A stretch of DNA of 64,000 nucleotides. Origin: Rhodobacteraceae bacterium bin131 (GTDB taxonomy: Bacteria; Pseudomonadota; Alphaproteobacteria; Rhodobacterales; Rhodobacteraceae). Both the position numbers and the translations under genes were made by a program. Positions 8,018-49,665 of the stretch are shown here, one piece after another. Position 1 is the stretch's first letter. Every line of letters begins with the position of its first letter. Below the pieces are notes generated by a model. It did no database searches. It was not told where the DNA came from and saw only the letters and a program-made list of their open reading frames with translations. The DNA is taken from assembly GCA_002239085.1 (NCBI GenBank), contig MPNP01000003.1, forward strand, positions 27,501 through 91,500. Reading direction: 5' to 3'.

Positions 8018-8043
8018 CTTAAAAAGATGATAAGGCTAAACCT

Positions 8044-9092: not shown

Positions 9093-9158
9093 ATCATCCC
9101 TGCCAGTGTCGACTAAAAATATTATTCTATAAAAATCAATAAATTCGCTCGCATCAAT

Positions 9159-33118: not shown

Positions 33119-34050
33119 AGCGAGTTCGATTTCTTTTCGTGTTGAGAATCACATAGGAGTTGCATGACAGCCATACGTGTCGCAACACCGATTTCAACCT
33201 GATGCTGAATGACCGAATAGTTGATGTCGTCAGCAAGGTTACCATCAATTTCTACGCCACGGTTCATCGGCCCAGGATGCATGACAATAGCGTCTTTTTT
33301 CGCATACTTTAAGTTATTGTAATTCAGTCCAAATTCACTGTAATACTCTCGAATTGAAGGAACATAGGCGGCCTGCATACGCTCGGTTTGTAATCGAAGC
33401 ATCATGACGACATCAACATCAGTTATCCCGTCTACCAAATTATTGTAAACCTCCACTCCAAATTCACTGATATTCGCTGGAATAAGAGTGCTAGGGCCGA
33501 CTAACCGAACGCAATTGTTCATTTTGCTTAGTAGAAGCAGATTAGACCTAGCTACGCGCGAATGTTTGATATCACCACAGATTGCAATTGTAAGACCTGT
33601 AAGGGATTTCTTTGCTTGTCTAATTGTCAATGCATCAAGTAGAGCTTGGGTGGGATGTTCATGGGTTCCATCACCAGCATTTATGACTGAGCAATGAACT
33701 TTGTCAGCAAGTAGGCTTGGAGTTCCTGAAAGGGGATGACGAATGGCCAGCAAATCAGGTCGCATGGCATTCAATGTCATAGCGGTATCAATAATTGACT
33801 CTCCTTTGCGTAAGGAACTTTGTTGGATGCTCAGATTCATGACATCAGCGCCTAATCGCTTGCCGGCAATTTCAAAGCTAGCTTGAGTTCTAGTGGAACT
33901 TTCAAAAAACAAGTTAATGAGCGTTTTACCTGCCAGCAAATTTGAATGTTTTACTTCTTGGCGATTAACTTCAATAAAGTTTTCGGCATGGTCTAAAATC
34001 GACTCAATTTCCGAAACTGAAAGAGTTTCGACGCTTAACAGATGTTTAAT
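33115..34050 (-). CDS. pyrB: Aspartate carbamoyltransferase catalytic subunit (start codon uncertain, likely ATT)
   Basis: [51 protein letters not shown]. Conserved N-terminal sequence [41 protein letters not shown] lies upstream of the TTG at 33939. Confidence 0.9.
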
Positions 34051-34247
34051 AACTATTGTCCTTTTAAGTTGATGTATCGCAGGTCAAGGTATTTAATACA
34101 GAATTTTACTTGGAAATACTATTAAAGCAGAAGAGGTTATAAATTTTGCAAAAAATTAAGATGAAGGTGGAAAGAACTATTAATCAGCATCACAATTCAA
34201 AACGGAAAAAATCATTGTTTAATTGCTACACCCTAGTGAAATTAGAC

Positions 34248-34329
34248 CCATTGACAACCGACATCTAGCTGAATAGAGCTCTAAGAACTCTTTTATTTAT
34301 CATTCTGTATAGCGCGCCATTGACAACCG
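34248..34329 (+). repeat. Pair of 13-bp direct repeats ccattgacaaccg (34248-34260, 34317-34329)
   Basis: Exact 13-nt match spaced 69 bp, in the gap between pyrB and the catabolic island. Confidence 0.7.
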
Positions 34330-34731
34330 GTAGCTAGCAAGTACTGGTTGGCATTGAATATCTCACTCAAGCAGGTTTTACGTGATCGCCACATACGCAC
34401 TTGGGTAGAAAAAAGTTATTATCACTTCCCACTCCTCTTCGGTCACATCACATTGCATATAATTGTCAACTCGCATATATTTATCTCAAGCGGGCTTGTC
34501 CCACGGCAGCATGTTATACCTCCTTTTTTTTGCTAATGTTTGAAGGTGTAACATACACGTATGCAAGGTCTTTTGTTACCTCATTGATTTATGGAACAGG
34601 CTCTTAGACATGATTTGCAAACGAATCTCATATCAAAAACAACATGAAGTCCGACTGAATGACAACATTTTAATTTGGAAACGACTTCTCTCTAAACCTA
34701 AAGCAAGGTGCTCCTTCCCTTGACTATCATC

Positions 34732-36369
34732 TCAGTCTGACAATATCCATCTCTTAGCCAATTGTAAGGCAAGCAAGCGTGAAAAAAATCTTGCTTGATA
34801 AAGATTACCACCAGTCATCCACAAACCGGATTGAGCAGTTTCGACCCACATATTGCGTTGCTCACCGATCCAGGGGCCTGGATCCCCTTTGGTTCCAGAT
34901 CCGTAGCCCCAGCAGGGACCAATACGCTTGGCAGTTTCTGGATCAATCAATGCACTAACCCAGTCGGTCATGTTACCATAGCCAGTGGCATAGATTACTG
35001 TATCAGTCGTGATTTCTTCGCCACTTGTCAAATGAACGGCGTATCTCGATAGATGCTTGATACCTTGCCCCGAACGGATTTGGATGCTCCCTTCTATCAC
35101 CATCTCTGAACCACCTACATCAATGTAGTAACCTGACGCAGTACGACGATATTTCATACCAAGACCAGTTCCGTCTTCGGCAAAATCCACTGTAAAACCG
35201 GCATCAGTTAAGTGTTGATAAAAGCTCTGACGGTCCTTGCGAATGCCATCCCAAATGGCCCGATGCTTAGTTTCTAACAAACGAAGAGGGACTGAGGCCT
35301 GTATGATATCTGCCCTATCAACTGTGATTCCCTTGGCTAAAGCTTTGGCCGAATAAAGCGATCCTAAAATCCGCTCGCAATAATCTTGCTGGTTTACAAC
35401 CAAAGTTGATGAACGTTGGATCATGATCGGATGTGACCCGTTTAATGCCAGATCGGAAGCTATATCATGAGCAGAGTTATTGGCTCCAACTATAACAACG
35501 GGTTTACCAACAGATGCCACCCCGCTTTTATAATCACTGGAATGCATCTGAAAACCCTCAAAAGTTTCTTGTCCATCAAATTTTGGTACCTTTGGAAAGC
35601 CTGAAAGTCCAAGTGCAACTACCAAATGGGTAGGATTCAGAATTTGTGTTTCGCCATTCTTGCAAATTTTAGCGTGCCAATTACCCCGCGTTTCATCATA
35701 ACGAGCACAAGTTAATTTAGTACTGGTCCAAATGTTGAGCGCGAGCTCATTAGCATACTTCTCCAACCAATCCCCCATCAAATCTTTGGGGGTGAAGACT
35801 GGCCAATCCTTGGGGAATGGCTTAAAAGGCATGTGGTTGTACCAGACAGGATCATGTAACACGAGACTGTCATAACGCAACCTCCACTGGTCGCCTACAC
35901 ATGGATATTTGTCGATGATTAGATAGGGTACACTGAGTTCTTGCAGTTGTGCTCCCAAAGCTAGCCCTGCTTGACCACCTCCCACGACAAGCACGTATGG
36001 CGAAGTCTCTTTTGTGGTTTTGTCGTATTTATGCGGTAAATCATTGAGCATTGTAAAGAGGCTGGTACAAAGGTCATCTTCGACATATACATAACCTCTA
36101 CCCGGCCCTTCCTTGGTTTGAAAGCGAAAGAAACCTTCATTGTCACATGGCTTACCTTCGAAATGCACCCCCTCAAAACCGGCTGCTGATGCATGATTCG
36201 AGCCAAATTGTGCGATGGCTTTACGCCCCTCAATGGTTTGTAGACTCCAACCGAAAGGTAGATAATCACGCCAAAAACCACCTTCATCAAACAACTCTGA
36301 GATGCGTGTTCCATCCCCAGTAGCAACAATTTCAGTAAAGTCGGATAACCATTCTGCGGCGTGTTTCAT
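34732..36369 (-). CDS. Class B flavin-containing monooxygenase-like protein with N-terminal NTF2-like domain
   Basis: VLVVGGGQAGLALGAQL; KPVVIVGANNSAHDIASDLA; NTF2-like N-terminus (WLSDFTEIVATGDGTRISELFDEGGFWRDYLPFGWSLQTIEGRKAI). ATG at 36369 avoids overlap with the upstream gene. Confidence 0.85.
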   Translation of the reverse strand: MKHAAEWLSDFTEIVATGDGTRISELFDEGGFWRDYLPFGWSLQTIEGRKAIAQFGSNHASAAGFEGVHFEGKPCDNEGFFRFQTKEGPGRGYVYVEDDLCTSLFTMLNDLPHKYDKTTKETSPYVLVVGGGQAGLALGAQLQELSVPYLIIDKYPCVGDQWRLRYDSLVLHDPVWYNHMPFKPFPKDWPVFTPKDLMGDWLEKYANELALNIWTSTKLTCARYDETRGNWHAKICKNGETQILNPTHLVVALGLSGFPKVPKFDGQETFEGFQMHSSDYKSGVASVGKPVVIVGANNSAHDIASDLALNGSHPIMIQRSSTLVVNQQDYCERILGSLYSAKALAKGITVDRADIIQASVPLRLLETKHRAIWDGIRKDRQSFYQHLTDAGFTVDFAEDGTGLGMKYRRTASGYYIDVGGSEMVIEGSIQIRSGQGIKHLSRYAVHLTSGEEITTDTVIYATGYGNMTDWVSALIDPETAKRIGPCWGYGSGTKGDPGPWIGEQRNMWVETAQSGLWMTGGNLYQARFFSRLLALQLAKRWILSD

Positions 36370-36373
36370 GCCA

Positions 36374-37519
36374 TTACATCCAATCTGTAAAATCTGTGAG
36401 CCTATTGAGGGAAGGCGGGTGCACAAGGCCTGGAACCGAGGGTAACTCAACCCTTCCATCTTCAATGTTGATCACATCCCCACAGAGTTCAGAGCGAAGT
36501 AGGTTTTCGTTTACGTCTACCTCGCAATAGGAACTCTTGCCTATGGCAGCACTAACTGAAAGGGCCGCAACCTGTCCTACTGCGGTTCCCATGAAATGCG
36601 GCCAGATTAATACATCCTCAGGCATGTTTTTTGCTAGATCAAGTGCACCAGAAACACCGCCCCATTTAGCTACGTCCGGTTGGAGCACTTTTATGCCGGC
36701 TCGAGTCAGGGCAAGGAAATCTTCAATTCCATAAATATTTTCCCCCGCTGCGAGTGGGATATCTGTACTTGCAACGAGTTCTTCCCAGTCTGAATGTGGT
36801 GAGTCGGAACGCAGTGCTTCTTCGGCGAAATATGGCTCATAAGCCTCAATATCCCGCAGTGCTACCTTAGCCTGTTCCAGGGTCCAAGTTTGATTGCTAT
36901 CCACCATGATACGAGACCCGGCAGGAATTAGTTTGGCAGCATTTTCAACGATTTTTGCATTACCATGTTCGGCAAAACCAATCTTGAGCTTAAAATAGGT
37001 TTGCCCCAGCTCGGTATGAAAGGGGATTAGTTGCTCAAGATCCTCGGCATTGATCGAGGACGCATATGAGCGTGCCTTGGTAGACTGGAGTCCCATAAAC
37101 TGGGCAAATGAAACGCCTTCATGGCGCAAGGCAATATCCCAAAGCGCCGTATCAATTCCTGCCAGAATATGCTCAAATACTTGCGACTGACCTATATGGA
37201 GAAAGTAAAGGGATAAGGTTTTACGTAACACCTCTTGGACTTCGTGTGGTTCAGAAAAGGAAAAACCTCGCAAATGAGTCTCTATGACATCCTCAATGAT
37301 ATTTGCTTTATGTGTGTTGGCCCGAGGTGGGAAATTCGCCCAGATCTCGCCCCACCCATAACAGCCTGAACTATCCTCAATCTTGACCAAGAGAGCAGGA
37401 CGAGTTGGCATGGTCCCAAGTGCCATTTTTGGTGAGTAAGTTCCTGATGCACGGATTGGAAAGGCCTTGATCCGGGCAATTTTAATAGTGTCTTGAAAAT
37501 TCATCTCATGACGCAACAT
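36374..37519 (-). CDS. Enolase-superfamily (mandelate racemase-like) sugar-acid dehydratase/racemase
   Basis: YFKLKIGF (KxK), MVDSNQTW, FAEEAL, AAGENIYG metal-ligand series, and Asp/His (QPDVAKWGG / WPHFMGTAVG). Confidence 0.88.
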   Translation of the reverse strand: MLRHEMNFQDTIKIARIKAFPIRASGTYSPKMALGTMPTRPALLVKIEDSSGCYGWGEIWANFPPRANTHKANIIEDVIETHLRGFSFSEPHEVQEVLRKTLSLYFLHIGQSQVFEHILAGIDTALWDIALRHEGVSFAQFMGLQSTKARSYASSINAEDLEQLIPFHTELGQTYFKLKIGFAEHGNAKIVENAAKLIPAGSRIMVDSNQTWTLEQAKVALRDIEAYEPYFAEEALRSDSPHSDWEELVASTDIPLAAGENIYGIEDFLALTRAGIKVLQPDVAKWGGVSGALDLAKNMPEDVLIWPHFMGTAVGQVAALSVSAAIGKSSYCEVDVNENLLRSELCGDVINIEDGRVELPSVPGLVHPPSLNRLTDFTDWM

Positions 37520-37663
37520 AGGCGGCTTGTTTGGTGGTGTGGGAATTCACTGCCGTCGGCCCAACTGAATAGGGTCAGTACCTGATTTTTTTGGACGGGT
37601 TATCGAGATGGACGGTCTCATAGGATATTTTACTGGAATCAAATTCATACTGAAGTCCATGAG

Positions 37664-38647
37664 TTACCCCTTCTTCAGTATCACCTGACGGGCTGCATCC
37701 GCAATGGCCGGCGCGTCTAGACCGAACTTGTTCATCAGATAAGGCGTAGTTCCACCTTCACAAAATTGATCCTTAACACCCACTCGTTTGAATGGCAGAC
37801 CAATACCTTCCTCAACAAGAACTTCTGCCACTGCTGATCCAAGTCCACCAATAATGCTATGGTTTTCGGCAGTTACAATTGCACCGGTCCTAGTGGCACT
37901 TTCAATTATCAACGCCTGATCAAGCGGCTTAATTGAGGCCATATCTACAACTCTTGCCTCAATACCTTCTTTGGCAAGAGTATCTGCAGTTGCCAAAGAT
38001 TCCTTTACACATAGTCCAGCCGCGATAATGGTCAAATCAGTACCCTCACGCATGATCACACCTTTACCTACCTTCAAGCTTTGGGGTATGAAATCTGGTG
38101 GAGTTGTTTCGGGGCGTTTCATGCGAAGGTAGACGGGGCCGTTCCAATCAAGGGCAAGCTTGACCATGGCGGCATGATATTCAGGTCCCGAAGGCTCAAA
38201 AATAGCCATATTAGGGACAGCACGCATGATGGCGATATCCTCAATAGCCTGATGCGAAACTCCGAGCATTGTGGCAACACCGGGCAGAAAGCCCACAATT
38301 TTAACTGGTAGGTTCGGATAGGCGACTTGCATGGTAATCTGATCAAGTACGCGTTTGGTGATAAAGGCGCAAAAGGAATGGCAGAAAGGAATTTCACCAG
38401 ACCGGGCCATGCCTCCAGCAATGCCGATCATATTCGCTTCAGCAATACCTACGTTGTGAAACCGTTCGGGCAGTTCGTCGCGAAACAGGTCGGTTTCAGT
38501 AGGGGGAACCAAATCGGCACAAAGTGCTACAATACGTGGGTCAGTCTTCGCCACCTTGACCAATGCATCACCATAGGCTCGTGGTAATGGCTTAAACGAT
38601 CGATTGATGAAATCAGCTGCCTCAAGCTGGGTCAATGTCTCGGTCAT
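37664..38647 (-). CDS. Split transketolase, C-terminal (pyrimidine-binding) half, pair 1
   Basis: RFHNVGIAEANMIGIAGGMARSGEIPFCHSFCAFITKRVLDQI; C-terminal transketolase domain; 4-bp overlap with the N-half. Confidence 0.92.
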   Translation of the reverse strand: MTETLTQLEAADFINRSFKPLPRAYGDALVKVAKTDPRIVALCADLVPPTETDLFRDELPERFHNVGIAEANMIGIAGGMARSGEIPFCHSFCAFITKRVLDQITMQVAYPNLPVKIVGFLPGVATMLGVSHQAIEDIAIMRAVPNMAIFEPSGPEYHAAMVKLALDWNGPVYLRMKRPETTPPDFIPQSLKVGKGVIMREGTDLTIIAAGLCVKESLATADTLAKEGIEARVVDMASIKPLDQALIIESATRTGAIVTAENHSIIGGLGSAVAEVLVEEGIGLPFKRVGVKDQFCEGGTTPYLMNKFGLDAPAIADAARQVILKKG

Positions 38648-39477
38648 AACAACGCCTCCAATTCAGTGCGTGCACTTGCGGCGACCTCTTGAGGAAACCG
38701 GAGTTGGTGGAACATCAACCCTTCAAGCGAAGTAACTCCTTTACCCATCAACGTGTTGGCCTTGATAAAGCTGGGTTTGCCTTTGGTCTCTCGTGCCGAA
38801 TCATAGGCGGCAAGTAAAGCCTCAATGTCGTTACCATCCACTTCTTGGCAAGCAAAGCCAAAGCTTTCCATCTTGTTTATGAGCGGTTCAAGCGACATTA
38901 CAAGATCCATTGCCCCTTCCGATTGAACAAAATTATAATCAACAATAATACAGAGATTGTCGAGTCCCTGGGCTCCGGCTAACATCGCTGCTTCCCAAAT
39001 TTGACCCTCTTGCATCTCACCATCCCCGATGATCACGTAAAAGCGGTTTGCCCGGCCTTGGCGCTTGGCTGCCAAAGCACAGCCCACGGCCACGGACAGG
39101 CCTTGACCCAGCGAACCACAGGTGGCCTCCACAAATGATCCTAAGCGCTCAGATGAGTTAATCTCAAGTGGTGAGCCGTCGGTGACATAGGTTGCCAAAT
39201 CAGCCACATTAAAAAAACCTCGCTCAGCGAGAGCGGCATAGAATATCGCAGTGTTGTGGGCAGTAGTCAAGAAAATTCGATCACGATTCGGCCAAGTTGG
39301 ATCGGCCGGGTCAATAGTTGCCTCGGCAAAGTAGAGTGTGGTAAAAATATCTGCCGCCCCAAGTCCTTGTTGTACATAACCCTGACCTGATGGGGCCACC
39401 ATATCTACTACATGTAGTCGCAATCGCGTAGCAATATTTGTCAATTCATGCAGATTATGTTTCACTTTCATGTTCAA
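38644..39477 (-). CDS. Split transketolase, N-terminal (TPP-binding) half, pair 1
   Basis: GSLGQGLSVAVGCALAAKRQGRANRFYVIIGDGEMQEGQIWEAAMLAGAQGLDNLCIIVDYN. Confidence 0.92.
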   Translation of the reverse strand: MNMKVKHNLHELTNIATRLRLHVVDMVAPSGQGYVQQGLGAADIFTTLYFAEATIDPADPTWPNRDRIFLTTAHNTAIFYAALAERGFFNVADLATYVTDGSPLEINSSERLGSFVEATCGSLGQGLSVAVGCALAAKRQGRANRFYVIIGDGEMQEGQIWEAAMLAGAQGLDNLCIIVDYNFVQSEGAMDLVMSLEPLINKMESFGFACQEVDGNDIEALLAAYDSARETKGKPSFIKANTLMGKGVTSLEGLMFHQLRFPQEVAASARTELEALL

Positions 39478-39495
39478 CCTGTGTTAAGATAAAGA

Positions 39496-39509
39496 TATAA
39501 AGCTTTATA
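39496..39509. promoter_or_regulatory. Candidate GntR operator (14-bp perfect palindrome)
   Basis: TATAAAGCTTTATA in the 57-bp divergent intergenic region between transketolase pair 1 and the GntR gene. Confidence 0.55.
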
Positions 39510-39534
39510 CCTTTGAAATAGAAGGATTGTCAAC

Positions 39535-40245
39535 ATGGATCTTCAATCAATGCGACGAACGGCAGTTCCATTGCACGCAGAAGTTGCTGAAGTGCTCCGC
39601 CACCAGATACTGTCAGGTAGTCTTGTGTCGGGAACTCGCCTGCCTACTTTGCACAAGTTGACCGAACAGTTGGGCGTAGCCCGGATGACTGTGGTACAAG
39701 CGATGAATACTCTTGAGGAAGAGGGGCTGATTGAAAAGCATTCTGGACGAGGAACCTTTGTCAAAGACGTGAAGCGGCCACGGAAACACACGCTTCAACT
39801 TAAAATGGAGATTTCACAAATCTATGCCATGGTCGATCATTTGAAAGTTTCAGTTCGCAAGAAATTTGCTGCAATAGAAAAGACCGATGATGGTCGTTAT
39901 TTCCGCTATTTACGCCGTATCCATGCCAAATGGGGCAAGCCGTTTTGCCAAGTGGATATTAAGCTGGATGATCGAATTTTTGAAAAAGCCCCGGAGCGAT
40001 TCGAGGAAGAAATTGTTGTGACGGTTCTTAAAGATCTCGGTGTTTCAATTACAAAAGCCCGACAGAATGTAACAATTTCCTATGCTGATTTTGCCATGGC
40101 CGAGGCACTTGGTATCAAAGTGAATTCAGCGGTGTTTCGTGTAACAAGGGAATTTATGGACGGCGAAGGACAGCTTATTTATTCGGCGATTCTCTACTAC
40201 CCGAGCGACCTTTTGGAATTTGAAATGGAGTTTACTGTTGACTGA
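39535..40245 (+). CDS. GntR-family regulator (HutC/UTRA type)
   Basis: LRHQILSGSLVSGTRLPTLHKLTEQLGVARMTVVQAMNTLEEEGLIEKHSGRGTFVKD; UTRA-like C-terminus. Confidence 0.9.
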   Translation: MDLQSMRRTAVPLHAEVAEVLRHQILSGSLVSGTRLPTLHKLTEQLGVARMTVVQAMNTLEEEGLIEKHSGRGTFVKDVKRPRKHTLQLKMEISQIYAMVDHLKVSVRKKFAAIEKTDDGRYFRYLRRIHAKWGKPFCQVDIKLDDRIFEKAPERFEEEIVVTVLKDLGVSITKARQNVTISYADFAMAEALGIKVNSAVFRVTREFMDGEGQLIYSAILYYPSDLLEFEMEFTVD

Positions 40246-40274
40246 CATATCTCTTGATGTTTCAGAATATTGGC

Positions 40275-40307
40275 TTGACTTTTATAATTGAGCATGTAAA
40301 GATACAT
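40275..40307 (+). promoter_or_regulatory. Candidate promoter/operator of the tctC operon
   Basis: TTGACT (40275-40280), then ATGTA-AAGA-TACAT inverted repeat (40294-40307) overlapping the expected -10 region. Confidence 0.4.
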
Positions 40308-40456
40308 ACATCTAGACCATTAAGGCATTTCTAAGTGATCTTGAAGCAAGGTTGTCTGGAAAAATTGGCCTTTAAACTGGGGTTAATGAAACAGTTTCAA
40401 ATTTTTTCAAATGGTATGGAAGTAATTTGAGGCGTTTAAAGAATGGAGAGTAAACT

Positions 40457-41425
40457 ATGAATCTTATCAAATTTGCCGTTTCGAGTATTGCGGTTTTGTG
40501 GTTGAGCATGGGGGTCGCATTAGCAGAATGGCCAGAAAAACCAATCACCTATGTTGTTAGTTTTGGGGCCGGTGGAAACGCAGACATTGTCGCACGAATG
40601 AATGCCGAAGTTCTTTCAAAGGAATTGGGTGTTCCAGTCAACGTTATTAACAAGCCAGGCGGAGCGCATATCCCAGCAACTATGTCTGTGGCTGAAGCCC
40701 CTGCCGATGGTTATACTTTATTCAACTGGTCACCACCATCTTTCATGATTGTACCACTAACGCGTGAGACACCTTATACTCCGCTTGAGGATTTTATTCC
40801 GCTTTTTGCAGGAATATCGGCCTCAAATGCACTTTATGTACGTGGAGATAGCCCTTACAATACATTTGAAGAGTTCCTTGAGGGAGCTAGGGAAAATAAG
40901 CTTACCATTGGCGTAAACAATCTAGGCGCACCCCCCAACTTGTCAGCAGTCCAATTAGCAAATGAGTTTGGGTTGGAATTCAAGACATTGGCATTAAAAA
41001 CTGTTCCTGCTACGATGGCAGGCTTGATCGGTGGTCAAGTAGATGTGGCCGTTGGTCAAGTTGCTTCAATTCACGCCTACCAAGATGGCGAGGTACGCCC
41101 CTTGATTATCCTTGATAATGGACGTCAGCCTTATATGGAGAAAGACTTGCCAGGTGTACGTACTGTGGGTGAAGCCTTCCCAGGTAAAGAGGCCGGTGTC
41201 TGGGTCCATGGTGGTTTGGCTGTTAAGGCTGGTACACCACAAGAGATAGTTGACAAGCTGTTAGAAGCATCCAAGCCCATGGGTGAAGAAGAGTTTATCT
41301 CTCAGGTTCCCAAATCTGTCGGTTACAACTGGGTGCATGGAGTAGATGAAACAACAGCCTTAATCCAGGCGGGGATTGACCTTTATTCCCCAATCCTAGA
41401 TGGTCTTGGCCTTCTCCACAAATAA
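40457..41425 (+). CDS. tctC: Tripartite tricarboxylate transporter (TTT) substrate-binding protein
   Basis: Signal peptide then EWPEKPITYVVSFGAGGNADIVARMNAEVLSKELGVPVNVINKPGG. Confidence 0.93.
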   Translation: MNLIKFAVSSIAVLWLSMGVALAEWPEKPITYVVSFGAGGNADIVARMNAEVLSKELGVPVNVINKPGGAHIPATMSVAEAPADGYTLFNWSPPSFMIVPLTRETPYTPLEDFIPLFAGISASNALYVRGDSPYNTFEEFLEGARENKLTIGVNNLGAPPNLSAVQLANEFGLEFKTLALKTVPATMAGLIGGQVDVAVGQVASIHAYQDGEVRPLIILDNGRQPYMEKDLPGVRTVGEAFPGKEAGVWVHGGLAVKAGTPQEIVDKLLEASKPMGEEEFISQVPKSVGYNWVHGVDETTALIQAGIDLYSPILDGLGLLHK

Positions 41426-41442
41426 CTTGTGGTATGATCTTG

Positions 41443-41475
41443 GACACCGTACAATATGGGAGCATGTACGGTGTC
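41443..41475 (+). terminator. Intercistronic stem-loop after tctC
   Basis: Perfect 11-bp arms GACACCGTACA / TGTACGGTGTC, 11-nt loop, no T-tract. Confidence 0.75.
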
Positions 41476-41496
41476 TATGATTTGAGGTAGTAATTC

Positions 41497-41958
41497 ATGT
41501 TCATCCAACGAATTGCCAACACTGTATTTGCGGTTTTGGTTATTCTGGTAAGTTCCTATTTCGCTTGGGTTGCTGAAGGGTTTGAAGCGACAGGTTTGTT
41601 GGCGAGCTCAGGCTTACCGTCAAAATTTTTTCCACAGTTGATGCTAGGCGCCATGGTTGCCTGTGCAATCATCGTCTGTTACCTATATGGGGTAAAGGGC
41701 GAAGCAGGTGGTGATACTGGCGAGACTGTGTTCGGCAATAAAGGGGATGCACGTCGTGGGATATTGATGCTGGCTGTCTCAGTTGCATGTTATCTCACCT
41801 GGCGTAGCTTTGGTTTTATTCCCATGGCTTTACTGCTCGGGCCATTATCTTTGTTGGCTATGGGGATCAAACAACCTTTGATCTATGCAACCGTTTGGGT
41901 GCTCACTGGATGTATCTATATTGTCTTTACCTACCTACTTGGGATACAGTTGGTATAA
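41497..41958 (+). CDS. tctB: TTT transporter small permease
   Basis: ~153-aa four-TM protein between tctC and tctA. Confidence 0.85.
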   Translation: MFIQRIANTVFAVLVILVSSYFAWVAEGFEATGLLASSGLPSKFFPQLMLGAMVACAIIVCYLYGVKGEAGGDTGETVFGNKGDARRGILMLAVSVACYLTWRSFGFIPMALLLGPLSLLAMGIKQPLIYATVWVLTGCIYIVFTYLLGIQLV

Positions 41959-41965
41959 TCTTATA

Positions 41966-43462
41966 ATGATAGAACCAAACGCACTCGCGATTGCAATTGG
42001 CCTATTGGCTGACCCCTTTACCATCACTTTGTTGATAGTGGGTATTATTCTTGGGATAATCATTGGTATCTTGCCTGGCTTGGGGCCACCTATTGCGATC
42101 GCATTGGCACTCCCATTTACCTTTTATATGGAAACGGTTCCTTCAATGATTCTATTGCTGGGGATTTATTCAGCCGCAATTTACGGAGGGTCAATCTCTG
42201 CAATCGCCGTCGGCATTCCTGGAACTGGAGCAGCAATAGCGACCGTTCAAGACGGGCATAAGATGTTTAAGGATGGTAGGGGAGGTGAGGCGCTTGGTTT
42301 TTCTCTGACCGGTTCAATTATCGGAGGACTATTCAGCGTCGTCTGTTTGGTTGTGATTTCACCTTTATTAGCAAGTCTTGCGGTCAAGTTCGGCCCACGT
42401 GAATACCTAGCTATCAGTGTCTTTGGCCTCATTGTTGTGGTTCGTGTGGCGGGCAAGAGCCTGTCAAAAGGACTTCTTATGGGCACAATGGGTATTTTCC
42501 TAACCACTTGGGGGCTGGATGAGTTAAATGGTACAGAGAGGTTCACATTTGGTACATACCATCTTTATGAGGGTCTCCCACTCGTCCCTTTTCTGGTTGG
42601 TCTATTCGCTGTATCAGAAGTGTTGATTGGGTCAGAGCGGGCTTTGCAGAGGACCAAATTCAATATGGACAGTTTGAAGGTTAAACTACCTAGTTTAAAA
42701 ACTTTATCCGGTTTGAAAGATGTGATACTGCGTTCCTCAATTATTGGAACAATCATTGGAATTATTCCAGGTGAGGGAGCGGCTGTAGGTGCCTTTTTTG
42801 CCTATTCAGAGGCCAAACGACGCTCAAAGACGCCTGAGGCATATGGTACCGGGATTCCAGAGGGAATTGTTGCCCCCGAGACGGCTAATAATGCAACTGT
42901 TGGTGGAGCCTTAGTACCTACATTGACTCTTGGTGTGCCAGGAAGTCCTGCGGCTGCAGTATTGCTTGGTGCTTTGCTGATCCAAGGTCTTACCCCAGGG
43001 CCAAAGCTCTTTAGTGACCGTCCTGATTTGATGTATGCGATTTTTATTGGTTTGTTCGTGATCAACATTCTTATGATGTTTATTGGTCTGGTAGCGATCC
43101 GTTTTGCTGCACGGCTGATCATGGTACCGACATCGGTTATTGTACCGACGGTATTGTTGTTGAGTTTTGTTGGGATTTACTCAGTCTCGTATTCATTCTT
43201 CAATGTAGGTGTGCTTTTGGGTGCTGGTATTCTTGGTTACGTGGTTCGTAAACTCGGTTATTCCATAGCACCTTTGTCCATTGGCTTTGTTTTGGGTCCC
43301 ATCCTCGAGAATTCCTTGCGCCAATCCCTGACCATCGCAGATGGATCAATTGTCGAGTTCTTCAATACACCCATTGGTCTGACGATTTACGCAGCACTAG
43401 CGTTGACTATCTTATTGGGGCCAATTACTTCGCGGCTTAGGGGAAGATCAGCCAAAGCATGA
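41966..43462 (+). CDS. tctA: TTT transporter large permease
   Basis: GIILGIIIGILPGLGPPIAIALALPFTFYMETVPSMILLLGIYSAAIYGGSISAIAVGIPGTGAAIAT; second IGIIPGEGAAVGAFFAYSEAKRRSK. Confidence 0.95.
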   Translation: MIEPNALAIAIGLLADPFTITLLIVGIILGIIIGILPGLGPPIAIALALPFTFYMETVPSMILLLGIYSAAIYGGSISAIAVGIPGTGAAIATVQDGHKMFKDGRGGEALGFSLTGSIIGGLFSVVCLVVISPLLASLAVKFGPREYLAISVFGLIVVVRVAGKSLSKGLLMGTMGIFLTTWGLDELNGTERFTFGTYHLYEGLPLVPFLVGLFAVSEVLIGSERALQRTKFNMDSLKVKLPSLKTLSGLKDVILRSSIIGTIIGIIPGEGAAVGAFFAYSEAKRRSKTPEAYGTGIPEGIVAPETANNATVGGALVPTLTLGVPGSPAAAVLLGALLIQGLTPGPKLFSDRPDLMYAIFIGLFVINILMMFIGLVAIRFAARLIMVPTSVIVPTVLLLSFVGIYSVSYSFFNVGVLLGAGILGYVVRKLGYSIAPLSIGFVLGPILENSLRQSLTIADGSIVEFFNTPIGLTIYAALALTILLGPITSRLRGRSAKA

Positions 43463-44952
43463 CCCATCAACCGAACATATTAATTATCTATGCCGACCAG
43501 ATGCGGTATGATGCTATGGGTTGTGCCGGTAATTCTGTGATTAAGACTGCTAATATCGACAGATTATCAATGGAAGGTGTGCATTTTAGCCAAGCCTATA
43601 CGAGTTATCCGCTTTGTTGCCCATTTCGAGCTTCGGTTCTGACTGGTAAATATGCACAAGGCCACGGGATGATTCAAAATCATTTTCCATTGCGCAACGA
43701 TCAAGGGTTCCTGGCCGAGTATATGCGCGATGCTGGCTATCGCACCGGATATATCGGCAAATGGCACTTGGAAGGTGGACCCAAACCAGGTTTTGTCCCG
43801 CCTGACCGGCGCTTTGGCTTTGATCATTTCATCGGATTTAACCGCGGACACTATTACAGGTCCTCGATTTATTTTGATAATGAAGGCCAAGCTTATCACT
43901 CAGAAAGATATGAGCCAGATTATCAAACTGACCAACTGATGGAATTTATTGATACCTCGGTCAAGGCTGGAGATAACAAGCCATTCTTAGGTTATATCAG
44001 TTATGGCCCTCCGCATTTTCCCATGGATATGCCGGATTATCTCCGCCAGATTTACGACCCAGACAAGATTCCTCTCCCACCCGGTGTGCCGGACCCAGAT
44101 TTACAGTCGAAGGTACAAAAACACCGCAACGAAGTCCTTTGCTTTGGCGACAAACGGTCTGGGCACAAGAGTCATGCGTCGCATGAAACCAAAGAGGTTG
44201 GAGAGGTTGAGACTGAAGCCGAAATTCGTGAGTTTATCGCTGAGTATTACGGTATGATTCATAATATTGATTGGAACGTTGGCCGTATCCTCAACCAACT
44301 TGATGCACTTGGGGTGACCAATGATACGGTGGTGATCTTTATGTCCGACCATGGCGATATGTGTGGACAACACGGGTCTTTTTGTGGAATCAAGAATCAA
44401 GCATACCGTGCGTCTATGCATGTACCATTGATCGTGCGTTACCCAGAACGATTCCAGCCAAAACGGACCGAAGCGATGGTTGATGTCGGGGTCGATATGA
44501 TGGCCACTCTCTTTGATCTTGTGGGGATAGAAATGCCAGGTGGACGTGATAGCCAATCCTATCTGTCGGCACTTGACGGTACAAGCGAAACAGCACGTGA
44601 TTCCATATGGTACCAAGTATTCACTCAAACTGGAGGAAACCCGCATGAATTTGCCCCATTTGCTGAACGTGGAATCCGTACCAAAGACTGGCTCTATATG
44701 CGACGCAAGAACCACCGTGCCATGCTTTTCGATCAGCGCAATGATCGAAACGAATTAAATAATCTGGTTGATGATCCCACTTATGCTCAATTAATGGATG
44801 AGTTTGATGTGAAATTAGATATACATATGAAAACCACTGGAGATGATTGGGATATGGCCGCCGACTTTCCTCCACCAGATTGGGTGACCCATGCACAGGC
44901 TGAAGAGTATCTTCAAAAGGTGCTCCTGCCAAAATCCAAAAACGTACCATGA
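43459..44952 (+). CDS. Cys-type sulfatase (alkaline phosphatase superfamily), no signal peptide
   Basis: FGly motif CCPFRASVLTGK (CxPxR); PNILIIYADQMRYDAMGCAGN; IFMSDHGDMCGQHG. Confidence 0.94.
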   Translation: MTHQPNILIIYADQMRYDAMGCAGNSVIKTANIDRLSMEGVHFSQAYTSYPLCCPFRASVLTGKYAQGHGMIQNHFPLRNDQGFLAEYMRDAGYRTGYIGKWHLEGGPKPGFVPPDRRFGFDHFIGFNRGHYYRSSIYFDNEGQAYHSERYEPDYQTDQLMEFIDTSVKAGDNKPFLGYISYGPPHFPMDMPDYLRQIYDPDKIPLPPGVPDPDLQSKVQKHRNEVLCFGDKRSGHKSHASHETKEVGEVETEAEIREFIAEYYGMIHNIDWNVGRILNQLDALGVTNDTVVIFMSDHGDMCGQHGSFCGIKNQAYRASMHVPLIVRYPERFQPKRTEAMVDVGVDMMATLFDLVGIEMPGGRDSQSYLSALDGTSETARDSIWYQVFTQTGGNPHEFAPFAERGIRTKDWLYMRRKNHRAMLFDQRNDRNELNNLVDDPTYAQLMDEFDVKLDIHMKTTGDDWDMAADFPPPDWVTHAQAEEYLQKVLLPKSKNVP

Positions 44953-44959
44953 GTGAATT

Positions 44960-45931
44960 ATGCTGCTGAAAGGCGTTCGCAGTTTTGACCCTGCACCATT
45001 TGACGAGATAAGTTATGATCTATGCCGGCGTCGTAAAAATGTGGTGATCATAAGTGCGGACCTCAGTAAATATTGCCAAGTATTTCGAGTGAAAAACGAG
45101 TTACCAGAGCAGCATCTTGATGTGGGCATGGCCGAGCAAAATTTGCTGTCAGTAGCAGCTGGAGTAGCTAGGTCAGGATTGATTCCGGTGGCAACCTGTT
45201 TTGCTTGTTACATTACCCGGCGAGCTTATGATCAGATGATGATCTGCATGGGTACCGGATCGGGACCGGGAACAAATCGAGCGGAAGGGCCAACCAATAT
45301 CGCTATTGGCTTTACCCCTGGCATCGCCAACCCAGCTCGAATCCATCATCAAGCCGCTGAGGACCTAGGCATGGTGCGTGCGATTCCCAATGCAACCGTG
45401 ATTGATCCCATGGATCCAACGGATTTTCGTGCAGCCCTTAACACCGTTGTCGATCTGCCAGGACTGACCTATATCCGTGGTCATCGCGGTGATACACCGC
45501 TTTTGCTTGACAGCAAGAAATTTAACTTTGAGATTGGAAAAACCTACCCATTGAAGCGAGGTAAGGGGCTCGGGATAATCGCGACAGGTCTTGGCACCCA
45601 ATGGGCGCTTGAGGCTTCTGCTCTACTGAGCGAACGAGGAGTCGACCACTCCCTCCTTCATGTGCCGACAATCAAGCCTGTAAATGAAGATGAGATTGCA
45701 GATTTTTCTTTTGCCCACGACCAAATTGTAACGGTGGAAAATCATCAGATTGTCACTGGGCTTGGATCATTGGTGGCAGAAATTATCTCTGACATTGGAG
45801 GAGGGCCGCCAGTAAAACGTTTTGGCCTACCCAATCGATGGGCACCAGGTGGATCTCTGGCTTATATCCGTGCGCAACTCGGCCTTGATGCCCAGACACT
45901 TGCCAATGATATTGCGGAGAATGTACGGTGA
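44960..45931 (+). CDS. Split transketolase, C-terminal half, pair 2
   Basis: LDVGMAEQNLLSVAAGVARSGLIPVATCFACYITRRAYDQM; C-terminal transketolase domain. Confidence 0.91.
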   Translation: MLLKGVRSFDPAPFDEISYDLCRRRKNVVIISADLSKYCQVFRVKNELPEQHLDVGMAEQNLLSVAAGVARSGLIPVATCFACYITRRAYDQMMICMGTGSGPGTNRAEGPTNIAIGFTPGIANPARIHHQAAEDLGMVRAIPNATVIDPMDPTDFRAALNTVVDLPGLTYIRGHRGDTPLLLDSKKFNFEIGKTYPLKRGKGLGIIATGLGTQWALEASALLSERGVDHSLLHVPTIKPVNEDEIADFSFAHDQIVTVENHQIVTGLGSLVAEIISDIGGGPPVKRFGLPNRWAPGGSLAYIRAQLGLDAQTLANDIAENVR

Positions 45932-46773
45932 GAAGCAACCACTGTATACTGGAATTGGAAATCATTGCTGCTAGGATCCGACGCAATGTACTCGAGATTT
46001 GTCGCCAGCGTGGCGGGTATGCAGCGCAAGGGGTGGCCCTCGCAGACATCGCGGCGTGCCTTTATTTTGATGAGTTGCGTCCAGATAATGAGGGCTGGTA
46101 TTATGACCGGTTTGTTTTGTCGAACGGACATGACGCGATCATGACATACAGTGCCTTGGCAGAAACTGGTCACTACACAATGGACGAATTGCGGACCTAC
46201 AATGCAGATGGAACAAAAGTGGATCAAAGTCCGATTGAAGGTCAGTTAGGGTTTGAGATTACAGCAGGTTCCCTAGGTCAAGGTCCAAGCCAAGCCGCAG
46301 GGTTGGCTTGGGGTTTACGCCAACTAGGATCAGACCAGCGAATCTATTGCCTCTTTTCCGATGGCGAGCTGCAAGAGGGTAATGTCTGGGAAGGAGCGAT
46401 GTTCGCTGCCCACCAAAAGCTTGATAATCTTTGCTTTATCGTCGACAATAACGATATGCAAGCTTCGGGTCATCCTGGTGATGTGATGAGGGTTGAACCA
46501 GTACACGACAAGTTTACTGCCTTTGGTTTTCAAGTTCGCCGGATTAGTGTTATGGATATATCGGAATTACTTAACGCGTTTGAAGAGGCACGAAATACTA
46601 AGGGCAAGCCCTTTGTCGTGGTCTGTGACACCCGTCTGTGGGATGGGATTGATTGCCTGCAAAAAGTGCTACCAATGGCACATTATACTGCCAAAAATGC
46701 CGTCGATTGGGATAAAGGGTTGGACGAGGTCAATGAGACATTGATTAGATTGAAGGCAGAACTGAATGGTTGA
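45928..46773 (+). CDS. Split transketolase, N-terminal (TPP-binding) half, pair 2
   Basis: GSLGQGPSQAAGLAWGLRQLGSDQRIYCLFSDGELQEGNVWEGAMFAAHQKLDNLCFIVDNND. Confidence 0.91.
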   Translation: MRSNHCILELEIIAARIRRNVLEICRQRGGYAAQGVALADIAACLYFDELRPDNEGWYYDRFVLSNGHDAIMTYSALAETGHYTMDELRTYNADGTKVDQSPIEGQLGFEITAGSLGQGPSQAAGLAWGLRQLGSDQRIYCLFSDGELQEGNVWEGAMFAAHQKLDNLCFIVDNNDMQASGHPGDVMRVEPVHDKFTAFGFQVRRISVMDISELLNAFEEARNTKGKPFVVVCDTRLWDGIDCLQKVLPMAHYTAKNAVDWDKGLDEVNETLIRLKAELNG

Positions 46774-47545
46774 TTTACCCCTGAGCGGCAAGGTCGCAGT
46801 TATTACCGGGGCAGGGCGAGGTATCGGGAAAGCGATTGCCCTGCGTTTTGCCAAAGAAGGTGCAGATGTCGCGCTCTGTGCGCGTTCGCAAAACGAGCTA
46901 AGCGAGGTAAGCTCGATTATTAGTCGGTTCGGTAGTGCCTGTTTTACCTTACCGATTGATATGGCCAACCCTGCCCAGGTCAAGAGCTTTTGTGATCAAA
47001 TTAGTCATGAATTCGGTACAACGGACATAATTGTCAACAATGCCGGTGCCTATCTTGAGCGTGGAGCGTTTGAAGATTCTGACCCCGATCTATGGTGGAA
47101 AACCCTGGAAATCAATGTCCGTGGACCCTACCTGATTACCCGCCATTTGATTGCGAGAATGAATAAAGGAGGCAAGATAATCAACCTTTCCTCTGGCAAA
47201 GGCTATAGTGCAGGTGTAAATAGCAGTGCTTATCATGTCTCAAAGGCTGCATTGAATATGATGACCGAGAGTTTGGCCAATGAGCTTTGGTCCAGAGACA
47301 TAGATGTAAACACTTTGGTCCCTGGGCCTACAGCCACAGCGACTTTTGACAATGCTCCCCAAGGGCAAGAACGCTCACCGGAGGAAATTCTTGCCCAAGA
47401 CCGCAGTGCTTTACCCAAGGGACTTCCTGCATGGGAAAGAGTGAAACATCCTGATGAAGTGGCTGAATTTGCACTTTATCTTGCTACGCGTCCCGTAGGA
47501 GGGCCCACAGGTCAAATTTATTCGCTTGCCCGCCGTCCACTGTAG
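46766..47545 (+). CDS. SDR family oxidoreductase
   Basis: AVITGAGRGIGKAIALRFA; IIVNNAGAYLERG; YHVSKAALNMMTESLANEL. Confidence 0.93.
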   Translation: MVDLPLSGKVAVITGAGRGIGKAIALRFAKEGADVALCARSQNELSEVSSIISRFGSACFTLPIDMANPAQVKSFCDQISHEFGTTDIIVNNAGAYLERGAFEDSDPDLWWKTLEINVRGPYLITRHLIARMNKGGKIINLSSGKGYSAGVNSSAYHVSKAALNMMTESLANELWSRDIDVNTLVPGPTATATFDNAPQGQERSPEEILAQDRSALPKGLPAWERVKHPDEVAEFALYLATRPVGGPTGQIYSLARRPL

Positions 47546-47583
47546 ACTGTTCATGTGCATGTCTAAATAAACAAGCCTCAGAA

Positions 47584-48543
47584 ATGACAGTTCAACCCTC
47601 GCAAAAGCCAAACAGGAAAACCTGCTGTAGTCCCGCCCGTAACGAGAATGTGCATAATGCGAGTGTCCAATCAATCACAAAGAAAAAAACTCATGTGAAT
47701 TTTGCGACTGTCGAGGTGCCCGGTGGCATTGCCTTTTTGGGAACGAATAATCCACAGATTCCCGACGATGGCGAGAGACCATTGTGTAAAAAGCGAATAA
47801 AACCGTTTCGAATAGGTCAGACAGTTGTGACGAATCAAGAATTTCAGAAATTTGTCAATGAGACGGGATATGAAACCGACGCAGAGCGTTTTGGTTGGAG
47901 CTTTGTCTTTTGGTCTGAAGTTTCCAAACAGGTACCAGTTACCAAAGGTGTACATGGTGCCAGTTGGTGGCGACGTGTGGATGGGGCGACTTGGAAAGAC
48001 ATAAACGGCCCAGGAACAGAGGCTGAGGTTTGGTATCCGAATCATCCAGTTGTTCAAGTCTCGCACGCGGATGCCAAGGCCTATGCCAAGTGGGCAGGTG
48101 GGCGGTTGCCGAGTGAGTTGGAATGGGAACATGCTGCTCGTGCTGGTCAGGGGGATATTCGGTTTCCTTGGGGTGATACCGAACCCAATGATTCTAACAA
48201 TTTCCCTTGTAATATTTGGCAAGGTGAATTCCCGTTCTTAAACACAGGTGTAGATGGATGGAGAACAACCGCACCGGCAAAATCCTATCTACCGAACGCT
48301 TTTGGATTGTACAATATGATTGGCAATGTGTGGGAGTGGGCAGCTGATGCCTATAGAGTTAAATCACGAAAAAAACATGTACGCCGACAAATGAACCAGA
48401 TGCAGGGGTTTAAATTGCTTAAAGGGGGATCATTTATTTGTCATCGCAGCTATTGTTATAGATACCGGATAGCGGCTAGAACAGGTAATTCACCGGATAG
48501 TTCAGCAACCCATCAAGGGTTTCGGGTTGTGTGGGATAAGTGA
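47584..48543 (+). CDS. Formylglycine-generating enzyme (sulfatase-modifying factor)
   Basis: PGGIAFLGTNNPQIPDDGERP; GRLPSELEWEHAARAG; NVWEWAAD; catalytic Cys pair GGSFICHRSYCYRYRIAARTGNSPDSSATHQGFRVV as in SUMF1-type FGEs. Confidence 0.95.
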   Translation: MTVQPSQKPNRKTCCSPARNENVHNASVQSITKKKTHVNFATVEVPGGIAFLGTNNPQIPDDGERPLCKKRIKPFRIGQTVVTNQEFQKFVNETGYETDAERFGWSFVFWSEVSKQVPVTKGVHGASWWRRVDGATWKDINGPGTEAEVWYPNHPVVQVSHADAKAYAKWAGGRLPSELEWEHAARAGQGDIRFPWGDTEPNDSNNFPCNIWQGEFPFLNTGVDGWRTTAPAKSYLPNAFGLYNMIGNVWEWAADAYRVKSRKKHVRRQMNQMQGFKLLKGGSFICHRSYCYRYRIAARTGNSPDSSATHQGFRVVWDK

Positions 48544-48581
48544 TGCTATTTTGGCCCATAAGAGTGCCTCATTCACAAGGA

Positions 48582-48729
48582 TGATCCCAATGGCATCGTT
48601 CTATATCACGTCCTCTCAGTATCGGTTTCAGAATTTCCTCCGATTTTGATCTTCATCAATCAAACGGTCCCGAACAGATTTGTTAATGATAAACGCCTCA
48701 TTAAGTCCGGTAACAATTCCGGAGTAAAT
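48582..48729 (-). pseudogene. Relic of a Type IIG/Eco57I-TaqI-like adenine methylase-restriction enzyme (specificity region)
   Basis: Minus-strand translation IYSGIVTGLNEAFIINKSVRDRLIDED..(frameshift)..KSEEILKPILRGRDIERCHWD; recurrent motif of TaqI-like C-terminal specificity domains. Confidence 0.65.
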
Positions 48730-48819
48730 GGATGTATCATGTTCGGATTTTTACCTATCCATGGATTATAGAGTTAGTATCATGTAATATTTCGGAACAG
48801 GTTACGAATTCATAAACTT

Positions 48820-49665
48820 ATGGAACTGGCAATAAGCATGGAAAATGATTTGAATTTGAAGGCAATATTGCAGTATCAAATTGATCTAGGTGTTGATGAA
48901 GCTATTACAGCAAATACCTTCAATCGCTTTAAGGAGACCAAACTTCAAGGTCAAAAAAAACCTGAAAGAATTCTCTCACCAAAACCTATTCAATCCAAAC
49001 AAAGAAATAATTCATTACTCAGAGAGCAAAAATCCTCAAGTGTAGATAATACTGCAAATGAGGCAAAACTTGTTGCGGAAAAGCTGGTATCCGAAGTTCA
49101 AACACTTGATGACTTAAAAAATTCAATAGAAGCATTTAACGGCTGTGATTATCGTGAAACAGCAATCAATCTTGTTTTTGCTGATGGCAACCCAAAGGCA
49201 AAGATAATGGTAATTGGGGAAGCCCCAGGTCAAGATGAGGATAAACAAGGGTTACCTTTTGTTGGTCGGTCAGGCCAGCTTTTAGACAAAATTTTTTCGG
49301 AAGCTGGACTCAGTCGAAAAAGCAATGATTCATCAACGGCGATTTATATCACAAACGCTGTAAACTGGCGACCACCAGGAAATAAGACACCACCACCAGA
49401 AGTAATTGATATGTTCCGACCATTCATTCAAAAGCACATTGAGTTGGTCAATCCAAAAATTCTCGTACTTACAGGAAATTCATCGTGTAACGCAATTATC
49501 AATCGGGGCGGAATTACAGGACTGAGAGGAAAATGGATTAAGGGAGAGCGGTATTTCATAATGCCAATTGTACACCCTGCGTTTTTACTTAGAAATCCAA
49601 AAGTTAAGCGGGATACTTGGAACGATATACTGAAAATAAAGCAAAAATTACGGGAGCTAAGTTAG
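48820..49665 (+). CDS. Uracil-DNA glycosylase family 4
   Basis: KIMVIGEAPGQDEDKQGLPFVGRSGQLLDKIFSEAGLSR; IYITNAVNWRPPGNKTP; VHPAFLLRNP. Confidence 0.94.
   Translation: MELAISMENDLNLKAILQYQIDLGVDEAITANTFNRFKETKLQGQKKPERILSPKPIQSKQRNNSLLREQKSSSVDNTANEAKLVAEKLVSEVQTLDDLKNSIEAFNGCDYRETAINLVFADGNPKAKIMVIGEAPGQDEDKQGLPFVGRSGQLLDKIFSEAGLSRKSNDSSTAIYITNAVNWRPPGNKTPPPEVIDMFRPFIQKHIELVNPKILVLTGNSSCNAIINRGGITGLRGKWIKGERYFIMPIVHPAFLLRNPKVKRDTWNDILKIKQKLRELS

What the first reader, a model, noticed from the sequence alone, without database searches (positions are those of the whole stretch)
34732..48543. Candidate undescribed catabolic system: sulfatase, dedicated FGE, two split transketolases, TTT importer, enolase-superfamily dehydratase, FMO and SDR around one GntR
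Seen: two divergent operons share a 57-bp region with a HutC-type GntR gene. Minus strand: transketolase N-half, C-half, enolase-superfamily enzyme, FMO. Plus strand: GntR, tctCBA, sulfatase, transketolase C-half, N-half, SDR, FGE. Most junctions overlap or are tightly spaced. The block sits between housekeeping genes (pyrB and UDG/moaB). Known: sulfatases of the CxPxR type need FGly; split transketolases occur in specialised sugar pathways such as SqwGH of the sulfo-transketolase route and AptAB of apiose catabolism. Inference: a small sulfated (sugar-like or polyol-like) acid is imported, desulfated, oxidised or dehydrated, then cleaved by 2-carbon transfer. No sugar kinase or aldolase is present in the block, so this is not a recognisable known pathway. 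The substrate is unknown.
Basis: partly seen in the sequence, partly recalled or inferred. Interest (0 to 1): 0.75.

Follow-up and report, generated by a model that had tools for sequence, protein, structure and literature searches.

The report
Conserved sulfate-ester uptake and breakdown cluster
These thirteen neighbouring genes look like a kit, shared by many marine and sponge-dwelling bacteria, for importing a small sulfate-bearing molecule, cutting off its sulfate and breaking its carbon skeleton by a route not yet described; the molecule itself is still unknown.

Summary
Thirteen genes (34732-48543) form two divergent runs around a GntR/UTRA regulator. The encoded parts pass family tests: TTT importer, FGly-type sulfatase (C53-x-P-x-R), true FGE with both active-site cysteines, two split thiamine-diphosphate 'transketolases', an MR-subgroup enolase-superfamily enzyme, an SDR and a flavin monooxygenase.

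The block is a real unit. In 34 GTDB loci with the sulfatase at >=60% identity (Alpha- and Gammaproteobacteria), GntR and TctCA are linked in 26/26 with enough upstream sequence, a TK1-type pair in 25/26, the enolase-like gene in 20/22. Downstream of the sulfatase, 24 of 31 loci carry the second TK pair and the other 7 an acetolactate-synthase-like TPP enzyme; none has both or neither. In congeners pyrB and UDG are adjacent, so here the block is an inserted cassette.

Relatives add an aldehyde dehydrogenase. Both TK pairs keep the ThDP machinery but lack substrate-binding residues of ordinary transketolases.

Best reading: import, cytoplasmic desulfation and TPP-based C-C cleavage of a small organosulfate, distinct from sulfo-TK and choline-sulfate routes. 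Substrate and step order are inferred.

The parts
34732..36459 (-). Type II flavin monooxygenase of Baeyer-Villiger type (SnoaL/NTF2-like N-terminus + FMO domain)
   Evidence: Best PDB match 8acs = JsFMO, 505 bits, E 1.7e-150; catalytic His-Asp pair and Tyr of JsFMO (PMC10028610) align to H204, D205, Y446 (counted from the TTG at 36465) and are conserved in orthologs
36374..37519 (-). Enolase superfamily, mandelate-racemase subgroup (acid-sugar dehydratase/racemase type)
   Evidence: PF13378/PF02746; K177-x-K179, D207, E233, E260, D282, H308 invariant in 22 orthologs; nearest structure 3ddm of unknown function; all NCBIfam equivalogs below cut-off
37664..38647 (-). Split TPP enzyme pair 1, C-terminal half (TK1-C)
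   Evidence: PF02779/PF02780; substrate loop GFLPG...LGVSHQ replaces THAG...GEDGASHQ
38644..39477 (-). Split TPP enzyme pair 1, N-terminal half (TK1-N)
   Evidence: PF00456; GDGEMQEG kept, SGHPG and GHP motifs lost
39492..39513 (.). Candidate GntR operator, AAGATATAAAGCTTTATACCTT, in the shared divergent region
   Evidence: Palindrome core TATAAAGCTTTATA; only 0/1-mismatch site for the operator pattern in the window; right half-site TRTRCC is readable in the 21 intergenic regions compared, the left arm is degenerate in some
39535..40245 (+). GntR/UTRA (HutC-type) regulator
   Evidence: PF00392 + PF07702; present in 26/26 loci with enough flank
40457..41425 (+). TctC solute-binding protein
   Evidence: PF03401; nearest structure BugD 2f5x
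41497..41958 (+). TctB small membrane subunit
   Evidence: PF07331 above cut-off
41966..43462 (+). TctA large membrane subunit
   Evidence: PF01970, 476 bits; start moved by ortholog alignment
43459..44952 (+). Cytoplasmic S1-type FGly sulfatase
   Evidence: PF00884 + PF16347; D13, Q14, C53, P55, R57, K101, H103, D297, H298, K312 invariant in 33 orthologs; choline-sulfatase model 174 bits against cut-off 433
44960..45931 (+). Split TPP enzyme pair 2, C-terminal half (TK2-C)
   Evidence: PF02779/PF02780; loop GFTPGIANPARIHHQ
45928..46773 (+). Split TPP enzyme pair 2, N-terminal half (TK2-N)
   Evidence: PF00456; SDGELQEG kept, SGHPG and GHP lost
46766..47545 (+). Short-chain dehydrogenase/reductase
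   Evidence: PF00106/PF13561; linked in 18 loci of the first clustering
47584..48543 (+). Formylglycine-generating enzyme
   Evidence: PF03781 229 bits; C286 and C291 (CHRSYC) invariant in 14 orthologs; only FGE-family gene found in the assembly

Best explanation
The block is a self-contained catabolic cassette for a small organic sulfate ester, controlled through the GntR/UTRA regulator. TctCBA imports the intact sulfate ester. The FGE oxidises Cys53 of the sulfatase to formylglycine, and the cytoplasmic sulfatase releases sulfate. The resulting hydroxy compound is oxidised by the SDR (with ALDH/GMC in relatives) to a ketone or acid. The flavin enzyme inserts oxygen next to a ketone by Baeyer-Villiger chemistry, and the enolase-superfamily enzyme abstracts the alpha-proton of a hydroxy-carboxylate (dehydration or epimerisation). 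Two thiamine-diphosphate enzymes then cleave C-C bonds of acyloin or 2-oxo intermediates to feed central metabolism. Shown by sequence: gene content, catalytic residues, linkage, co-inheritance and interchangeable modules. Inferred: that transport and desulfation come first, the order of later steps, the C2 nature of the cleavages, and that the ligand is an acid-like marine metabolite.
For: Linkage: in 34 loci with sulfatase >=60%, TctCA + GntR 26/26, TK1 or a divergent TK pair 25/26, enolase-like 20/22, TK2 or ALS-like TPP enzyme 31/31. Sulfatase distances correlate with those of every other gene tested, r 0.64-0.95, permutation p 0.001. The sulfatase tree places gammaproteobacterial Thioalkalivibrio HK1 inside a clade of Rhodobacteraceae/Geminicoccaceae, consistent with transfer as a unit. 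Catalytic residues of sulfatase, FGE, enolase-like and FMO invariant or nearly so. Every one of 17 carrier genomes checked has an FGE-family gene. The genome has a normal full-length transketolase elsewhere, so the split pairs are extra. Two different monooxygenase types occupy the system in different clades, one related to a proven BVMO, the other with type I BVMO motifs: a shared chemical step. A parallel cluster in relatives (L154, L155) joins TK2-like pairs, SDRs and a TRAP importer with choline-sulfatase-type sulfatases.
Against: No substrate, activity or expression evidence. TTT receptors usually bind carboxylates, and whether TctC binds the sulfate ester is untested. The monooxygenase is missing from several loci with flank on both sides (for example L054), so it may be accessory. 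The window lacks the aldehyde dehydrogenase found in 13 loci; its best homologs elsewhere in the genome are only 29-33% identical. L050 has no TK1 pair or enolase-like gene in the held flank. Mirror-tree correlations partly reflect shared ancestry.
Confidence: 0.72

Rival explanations
1. It is a sulfo-TK-like or apiose-like sugar pathway: a sulfated sugar or sugar acid is desulfated and its ketose is cut by genuine transketolases that pass glycolaldehyde units to glyceraldehyde-3-phosphate.
For: Split TK architecture; enolase-like enzyme in the acid-sugar dehydratase subgroup; sulfo-TK cuts a sugar into three C2 units (PMC9594981).
Against: No isomerase, mutarotase or sugar kinase in the block; both TK pairs lack the His and Asp positions that the genome's own transketolase and the split CoTK keep.
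Confidence: 0.2
2. It is a choline-O-sulfate or similar quaternary-amine sulfate pathway, with the flavin enzyme acting on the amine and ALDH/GMC acting as betaine-aldehyde/choline dehydrogenases.
For: Parallel clusters L113, L154, L155, L048 have sulfatases above the choline-sulfatase cut-off; GMC in relatives is choline-dehydrogenase-like and the ALDH hits betaine-aldehyde dehydrogenases.
Against: Window sulfatase scores 174 against the 433-bit choline-sulfatase cut-off; the enolase-like and TPP enzymes have no role in betaine formation; the monooxygenase is closest to a ketone-oxidising type II FMO, not trimethylamine monooxygenase.
Confidence: 0.08
3. The 'sulfatase' is a phosphonate or phosphate ester hydrolase, and the system breaks down a phosphonate or phosphate ester.
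For: Same superfamily; PhnF-like score of the GntR protein (77 bits, below cut-off); phosphonate monoester hydrolases among PDB hits.
Against: PehA model 188 against 900; K101-x-H103 present in 33/33 orthologs, the pair expected of sulfatases (own knowledge); best PDB hits are sulfatases; no phosphonate gene in the block.
Confidence: 0.06
4. Two unrelated operons (a TTT-sulfatase unit and a TK-enolase unit) are neighbours by chance and merely share an intergenic region.
For: TTT + sulfatase units occur without TKs at about 40-53% sulfatase identity (L048, L051, L052, L057).
Against: 25 of 26 orthologous loci keep both, across two classes and different genome sites.
Confidence: 0.03

Closest known systems
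Sulfo-transketolase pathway of sulfoquinovose (SqvD-SqwGH-SqwI)
   Same: Split TPP enzyme cleaves a sulfur-bearing carbon compound in successive steps (PMC9594981)
   Different: Acts on a sulfonate, uses an isomerase and ordinary ketol transfer; here a sulfatase removes sulfate, no isomerase is present, and TK substrate-binding residues differ
Choline-O-sulfate utilisation (betC with dehydrogenases)
   Same: Cytoplasmic FGly sulfatase releasing a small alcohol that is then oxidised
   Different: Sulfatase fails the choline-sulfatase model; TTT importer, enolase-like, BVMO and TK pairs have no counterpart
Apiose/apionate catabolism (AptAB split transketolase)
   Same: Specialised split transketolase in a sugar pathway (own knowledge)
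   Different: No kinase or isomerase in the block; no sulfatase in the apiose system (own knowledge)
JsFMO and other type II FMOs
   Same: SnoaL-like N-terminus and His-Asp...Tyr catalytic set, Baeyer-Villiger activity on ketones (PMC10028610)
   Different: Characterised in vitro on model ketones; here placed in a conserved organosulfate cluster
Split transketolase of Carboxydothermus hydrogenoformans (6yaj/6yak)
   Same: Two-gene architecture, ThDP motif, closest solved relative of TK1-N and TK2-C, the halves searched
   Different: Keeps SGHPG, GHP, THAG and GEDG motifs that both pairs here have lost

Membership tests
S1 FGly sulfatase | C-x-P-x-R formylglycine motif, metal ligands, catalytic Lys/His | tested here: met
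   All invariant in 33 orthologs
S1 FGly sulfatase | Hydrolysis of a sulfate ester | not testable with these tools
   Needs enzyme assay
Choline-sulfatase (TIGR03417) | Score above the equivalog cut-off 433 | tested here: not met
   173.8 bits
Phosphonate/phosphate ester hydrolase PehA | Score above the equivalog cut-off 900 | tested here: not met
   188 bits
Aerobic FGE | PF03781 domain with the active-site cysteine pair | tested here: met
   229 bits; C286/C291 in 14/14 orthologs
Classical transketolase | ThDP/metal motif (GDG...N) and catalytic machinery | tested here: met
   Both pairs
Classical transketolase | Substrate-binding His/Asp positions (SGHPG, GHP, THD/THAG, GEDG motifs) | tested here: not met
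   Lost in both pairs, kept in the genome's own transketolase and in CoTK; residue roles from own knowledge
Sulfo-TK pathway | Sulfosugar isomerase SqvD (PF02952) with SqwGH | tested here: not met
   No isomerase among the 13 genes; rest of genome not searched for it
Apiose pathway (AptAB) | Split TK with apulose kinase and apiose isomerase | tested here: not met
   No kinase or isomerase in the block; definition from own knowledge; rest of genome not searched
Enolase superfamily, MR subgroup | K-x-K, three acidic metal ligands, His-Asp dyad | tested here: met
   Invariant in 22 orthologs
Named acid-sugar dehydratases | Score above an NCBIfam equivalog cut-off | tested here: not met
   Best 89.8 against 311 for galactonate dehydratase
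Type II FMO (BVMO-active) | SnoaL-like N-terminus, His-Asp pair and Tyr of JsFMO | tested here: met
   Alignment to 8acs over both domains, catalytic residues conserved
Tripartite tricarboxylate transporter | TctC + TctB + TctA above Pfam cut-offs in one operon | tested here: met
   103, 38 and 476 bits

The most novel reading that the evidence does not exclude
An undescribed organosulfate degradation route, widespread in marine and sponge-associated Alpha- and Gammaproteobacteria. After desulfation the carbon skeleton is opened by Baeyer-Villiger oxidation and taken apart by two split TPP enzymes that are no longer sugar transketolases but acyloin- or 2-oxo-acid-cleaving enzymes, one of them exchangeable with an acetolactate-synthase-like enzyme (often with an E1/E2 complex nearby).
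Probability: 0.4. Interest if true: 0.78.

Novelty: new variant of a known kind. Interest (0 to 1): 0.6.

Why it matters
Organosulfates are a large but poorly charted part of marine dissolved organic matter, and few small-molecule sulfate-ester pathways are known (own knowledge). This cassette gives a testable importer, regulator site and enzyme set. It recurs in named strains (HIMB11, Pacificoceanicola onchidii XY-301) and in genomes from lineages known as sponge symbionts (Candidatus Rhodobacter lobularis, Thioalkalivibrio sp. HK1; host from own knowledge). Its two TK pairs may be a new functional class of split TPP enzymes, and it places type II FMOs, characterised on model ketones, in a conserved metabolic setting.

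Tried and rejected
Choline-sulfatase and PehA identities rejected on score. Chance adjacency rejected on linkage. Enolase and TK homologs in plasmids are below 60% identity and sit in other contexts, so they do not reveal the substrate. A class-wide enolase search (385 genomes) and a phylum-wide TK1-N search (399 genomes) found no close relative of either outside this cluster; the nearest TK1 relative (57%) lies beside a TonB receptor and an aminotransferase-like gene. A strict claim that the ALS-like enzyme replaces TK2 genome-wide was softened: at least 5 of the ALS-like genomes searched carry a 58-59% TK2-N paralog elsewhere, itself part of a second cluster that is sulfatase-linked in some genomes. 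The ALS-like loci fall mostly in one clade, so the exclusivity (Fisher p 4e-7) is not many independent events. The home-made gene finder called shadow ORFs in GC-rich loci, which were set aside. Literature searches were empty or off-topic. No structure was predicted, as catalytic residues could be read from alignments.
Full report
Observation. Family assignments are firm: TctC/B/A all above Pfam cut-offs, a PF00884 sulfatase, an FGE, two split transketolase-family pairs, an MR-subgroup enolase-superfamily enzyme, an SDR, a GntR/UTRA regulator and a flavin monooxygenase. TctA most likely starts at 41966 and the monooxygenase at 36459 (and inspection). By eye, neither the sulfatase nor the FGE carries a signal peptide, so desulfation is probably cytoplasmic; this is inference from the N-termini, not a prediction program.

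It is a unit. The same genes occur in the same order in four congeners. A scan of GTDB genomes gave 47 loci, 34 with the sulfatase at >=60% identity, in Rhodobacteraceae, Geminicoccaceae, Granulosicoccaceae, Thioalkalivibrio sp. HK1 and others. With at least 5 kb of upstream sequence, 26/26 have GntR and TctCA. Twenty-one have the TK1 pair; L020, L021 and L022 have a divergent TK pair in the same slot, L054 has it downstream, and L050 has none. With 9.5 kb upstream, 20/22 have the enolase-like gene. With 2.8 kb downstream, 24/31 have TK2 and 7/31 an ALS-like TPP enzyme, never both and never neither. Distances of the sulfatase correlate with those of all other genes. The sulfatase tree mixes classes.

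Insertion. In five congeners (G001, G002, G005, G006, G008) pyrB and UDG are direct neighbours, a few hundred bases apart, and in the four of them that carry the block it lies on another contig. Here the block sits between those two genes, with a weak IS4/5-transposase remnant (20.9 bits, below the cut-off) at its left edge. The block therefore behaves as a movable cassette.

Catalytic residues. Sulfatase: D13, Q14, C53, P55, R57, K101, H103, D297, H298 and K312 invariant in 33 orthologs. FGE: C286/C291 invariant in 14. Enolase-like: K177, K179, D207, E233, E260, D282 and H308 invariant in 22. TK pairs: the ThDP motif (GDGE/SDGE...N) and the histidine of the LS.GH region are kept. But the SGHPG, GHP, TH and GEDG motifs, present in the split transketolase of Carboxydothermus and in the genome's own full-length transketolase, are replaced (SGQGY/RGGYA, EIN/EGQ, GFLPG/GFTPG, with a one-residue deletion) in both pairs and in the orthologs compared. 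In ordinary transketolases those positions contact the sugar or its phosphate (own knowledge), so these enzymes probably use other donors.

Monooxygenase. The window enzyme matches 8acs over both domains (505 bits). 8acs is JsFMO, a type II FMO shown to carry out Baeyer-Villiger oxidation of ketones, with catalytic His, Asp and Tyr (PMC10028610). Allowing for what reads as a 16-residue numbering offset of the deposited chain (the HD pair of the paper falls 16 positions later in the chain), those align to H204, D205 and Y446. Granulosicoccaceae and L050 carry instead a type I BVMO (FNGPVHHTALWP and GGVWFWNRYP motifs, 22% identical to the window enzyme over 222 residues). No locus holds both. 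Two enzymes of different type but like chemistry in one conserved cluster argue that a Baeyer-Villiger step belongs to the pathway.

Other modules. An aldehyde dehydrogenase lies in 13 loci, often between the enolase-like gene and TK1-C; a GMC oxidoreductase in at least three; E1 (and E2) components in eight. In relatives a second cluster joins TK2-like pairs (55-64% identity), SDRs (one about 54% to the window SDR in L153 and L155), a zinc alcohol dehydrogenase, a TRAP importer and, in L154 and L155, sulfatases above the choline-sulfatase cut-off. L113 joins a choline-sulfatase-type sulfatase, ALDH, GMC oxidoreductase, GntR and an enolase-like homolog. So importer + cytoplasmic sulfatase + oxidation + TPP cleavage may be a recurring design.

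Regulation. The 57-bp divergent region carries AAGATATAAAGCTTTATACCTT (39492-39513), the only 0-1 mismatch match to the operator pattern in the window; the right half-site is readable in the 21 loci compared, the left arm varies. The pattern was written after looking at these sequences, so this is a candidate operator only.

Mechanism. Import by TTT, FGly-dependent desulfation, oxidation, Baeyer-Villiger oxygenation, alpha-proton chemistry on a carboxylate, and two TPP cleavages. Content and residues are shown; order and substrate are inferred. Sulfo-TK and apiose routes share the split TK architecture but their isomerases and kinases are absent from the block. Choline-sulfatase identity fails on score. 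I rate the general reading at 0.72 and the more specific novel reading at 0.4.

Noticed in passing
window 34293-34476, minus strand: Weak remnant of an IS4/5-family transposase (DUF4096, 20.9 bits against cut-off 34.3) between pyrB and the block, probably frameshifted; a 22-bp direct repeat at 34248 and 34317 lies nearby.
   Followed up: partly
window 33115-49665 against G001, G002, G005, G006, G008: pyrB and UDG are direct divergent neighbours in five congeners, so the block is an insertion at this site in the window genome; four of those congeners carry the block on another contig and no close sulfatase was found in G005.
   Followed up: yes
L154, L155 (also L151-L153, L014): Second cluster with a TK2-like split TK pair, SDRs, zinc ADH and TRAP importer (L151 and L014 partial); L154 and L155 also hold sulfatases above the choline-sulfatase cut-off.
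   Followed up: partly
L113 3698-10301: Parallel set in the same family: choline-sulfatase-type sulfatase, ALDH, GMC oxidoreductase, GntR and an enolase-superfamily homolog (36%), near a TRAP-type transporter.
   Followed up: partly
L048 3103-11497: Phaeobacter sp. J2-8: rhamnonate-dehydratase-like enolase, TTT genes, PdxA-like dehydrogenase and two sulfatases in tandem, suggesting another organosulfate-acid pathway.
   Followed up: no
L156 (G000 C207) 1652-9541: Second sulfatase of the window genome (CGPSR motif) beside TRAP transporter genes, an ALDH, a GST-like protein and an SDR.
   Followed up: partly
L110 7347-10137: Sulfitobacter sp. THAF37 plasmid: enolase homolog (35%) beside TauE/SafE sulfite exporter and divergent TTT genes.
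   Followed up: no
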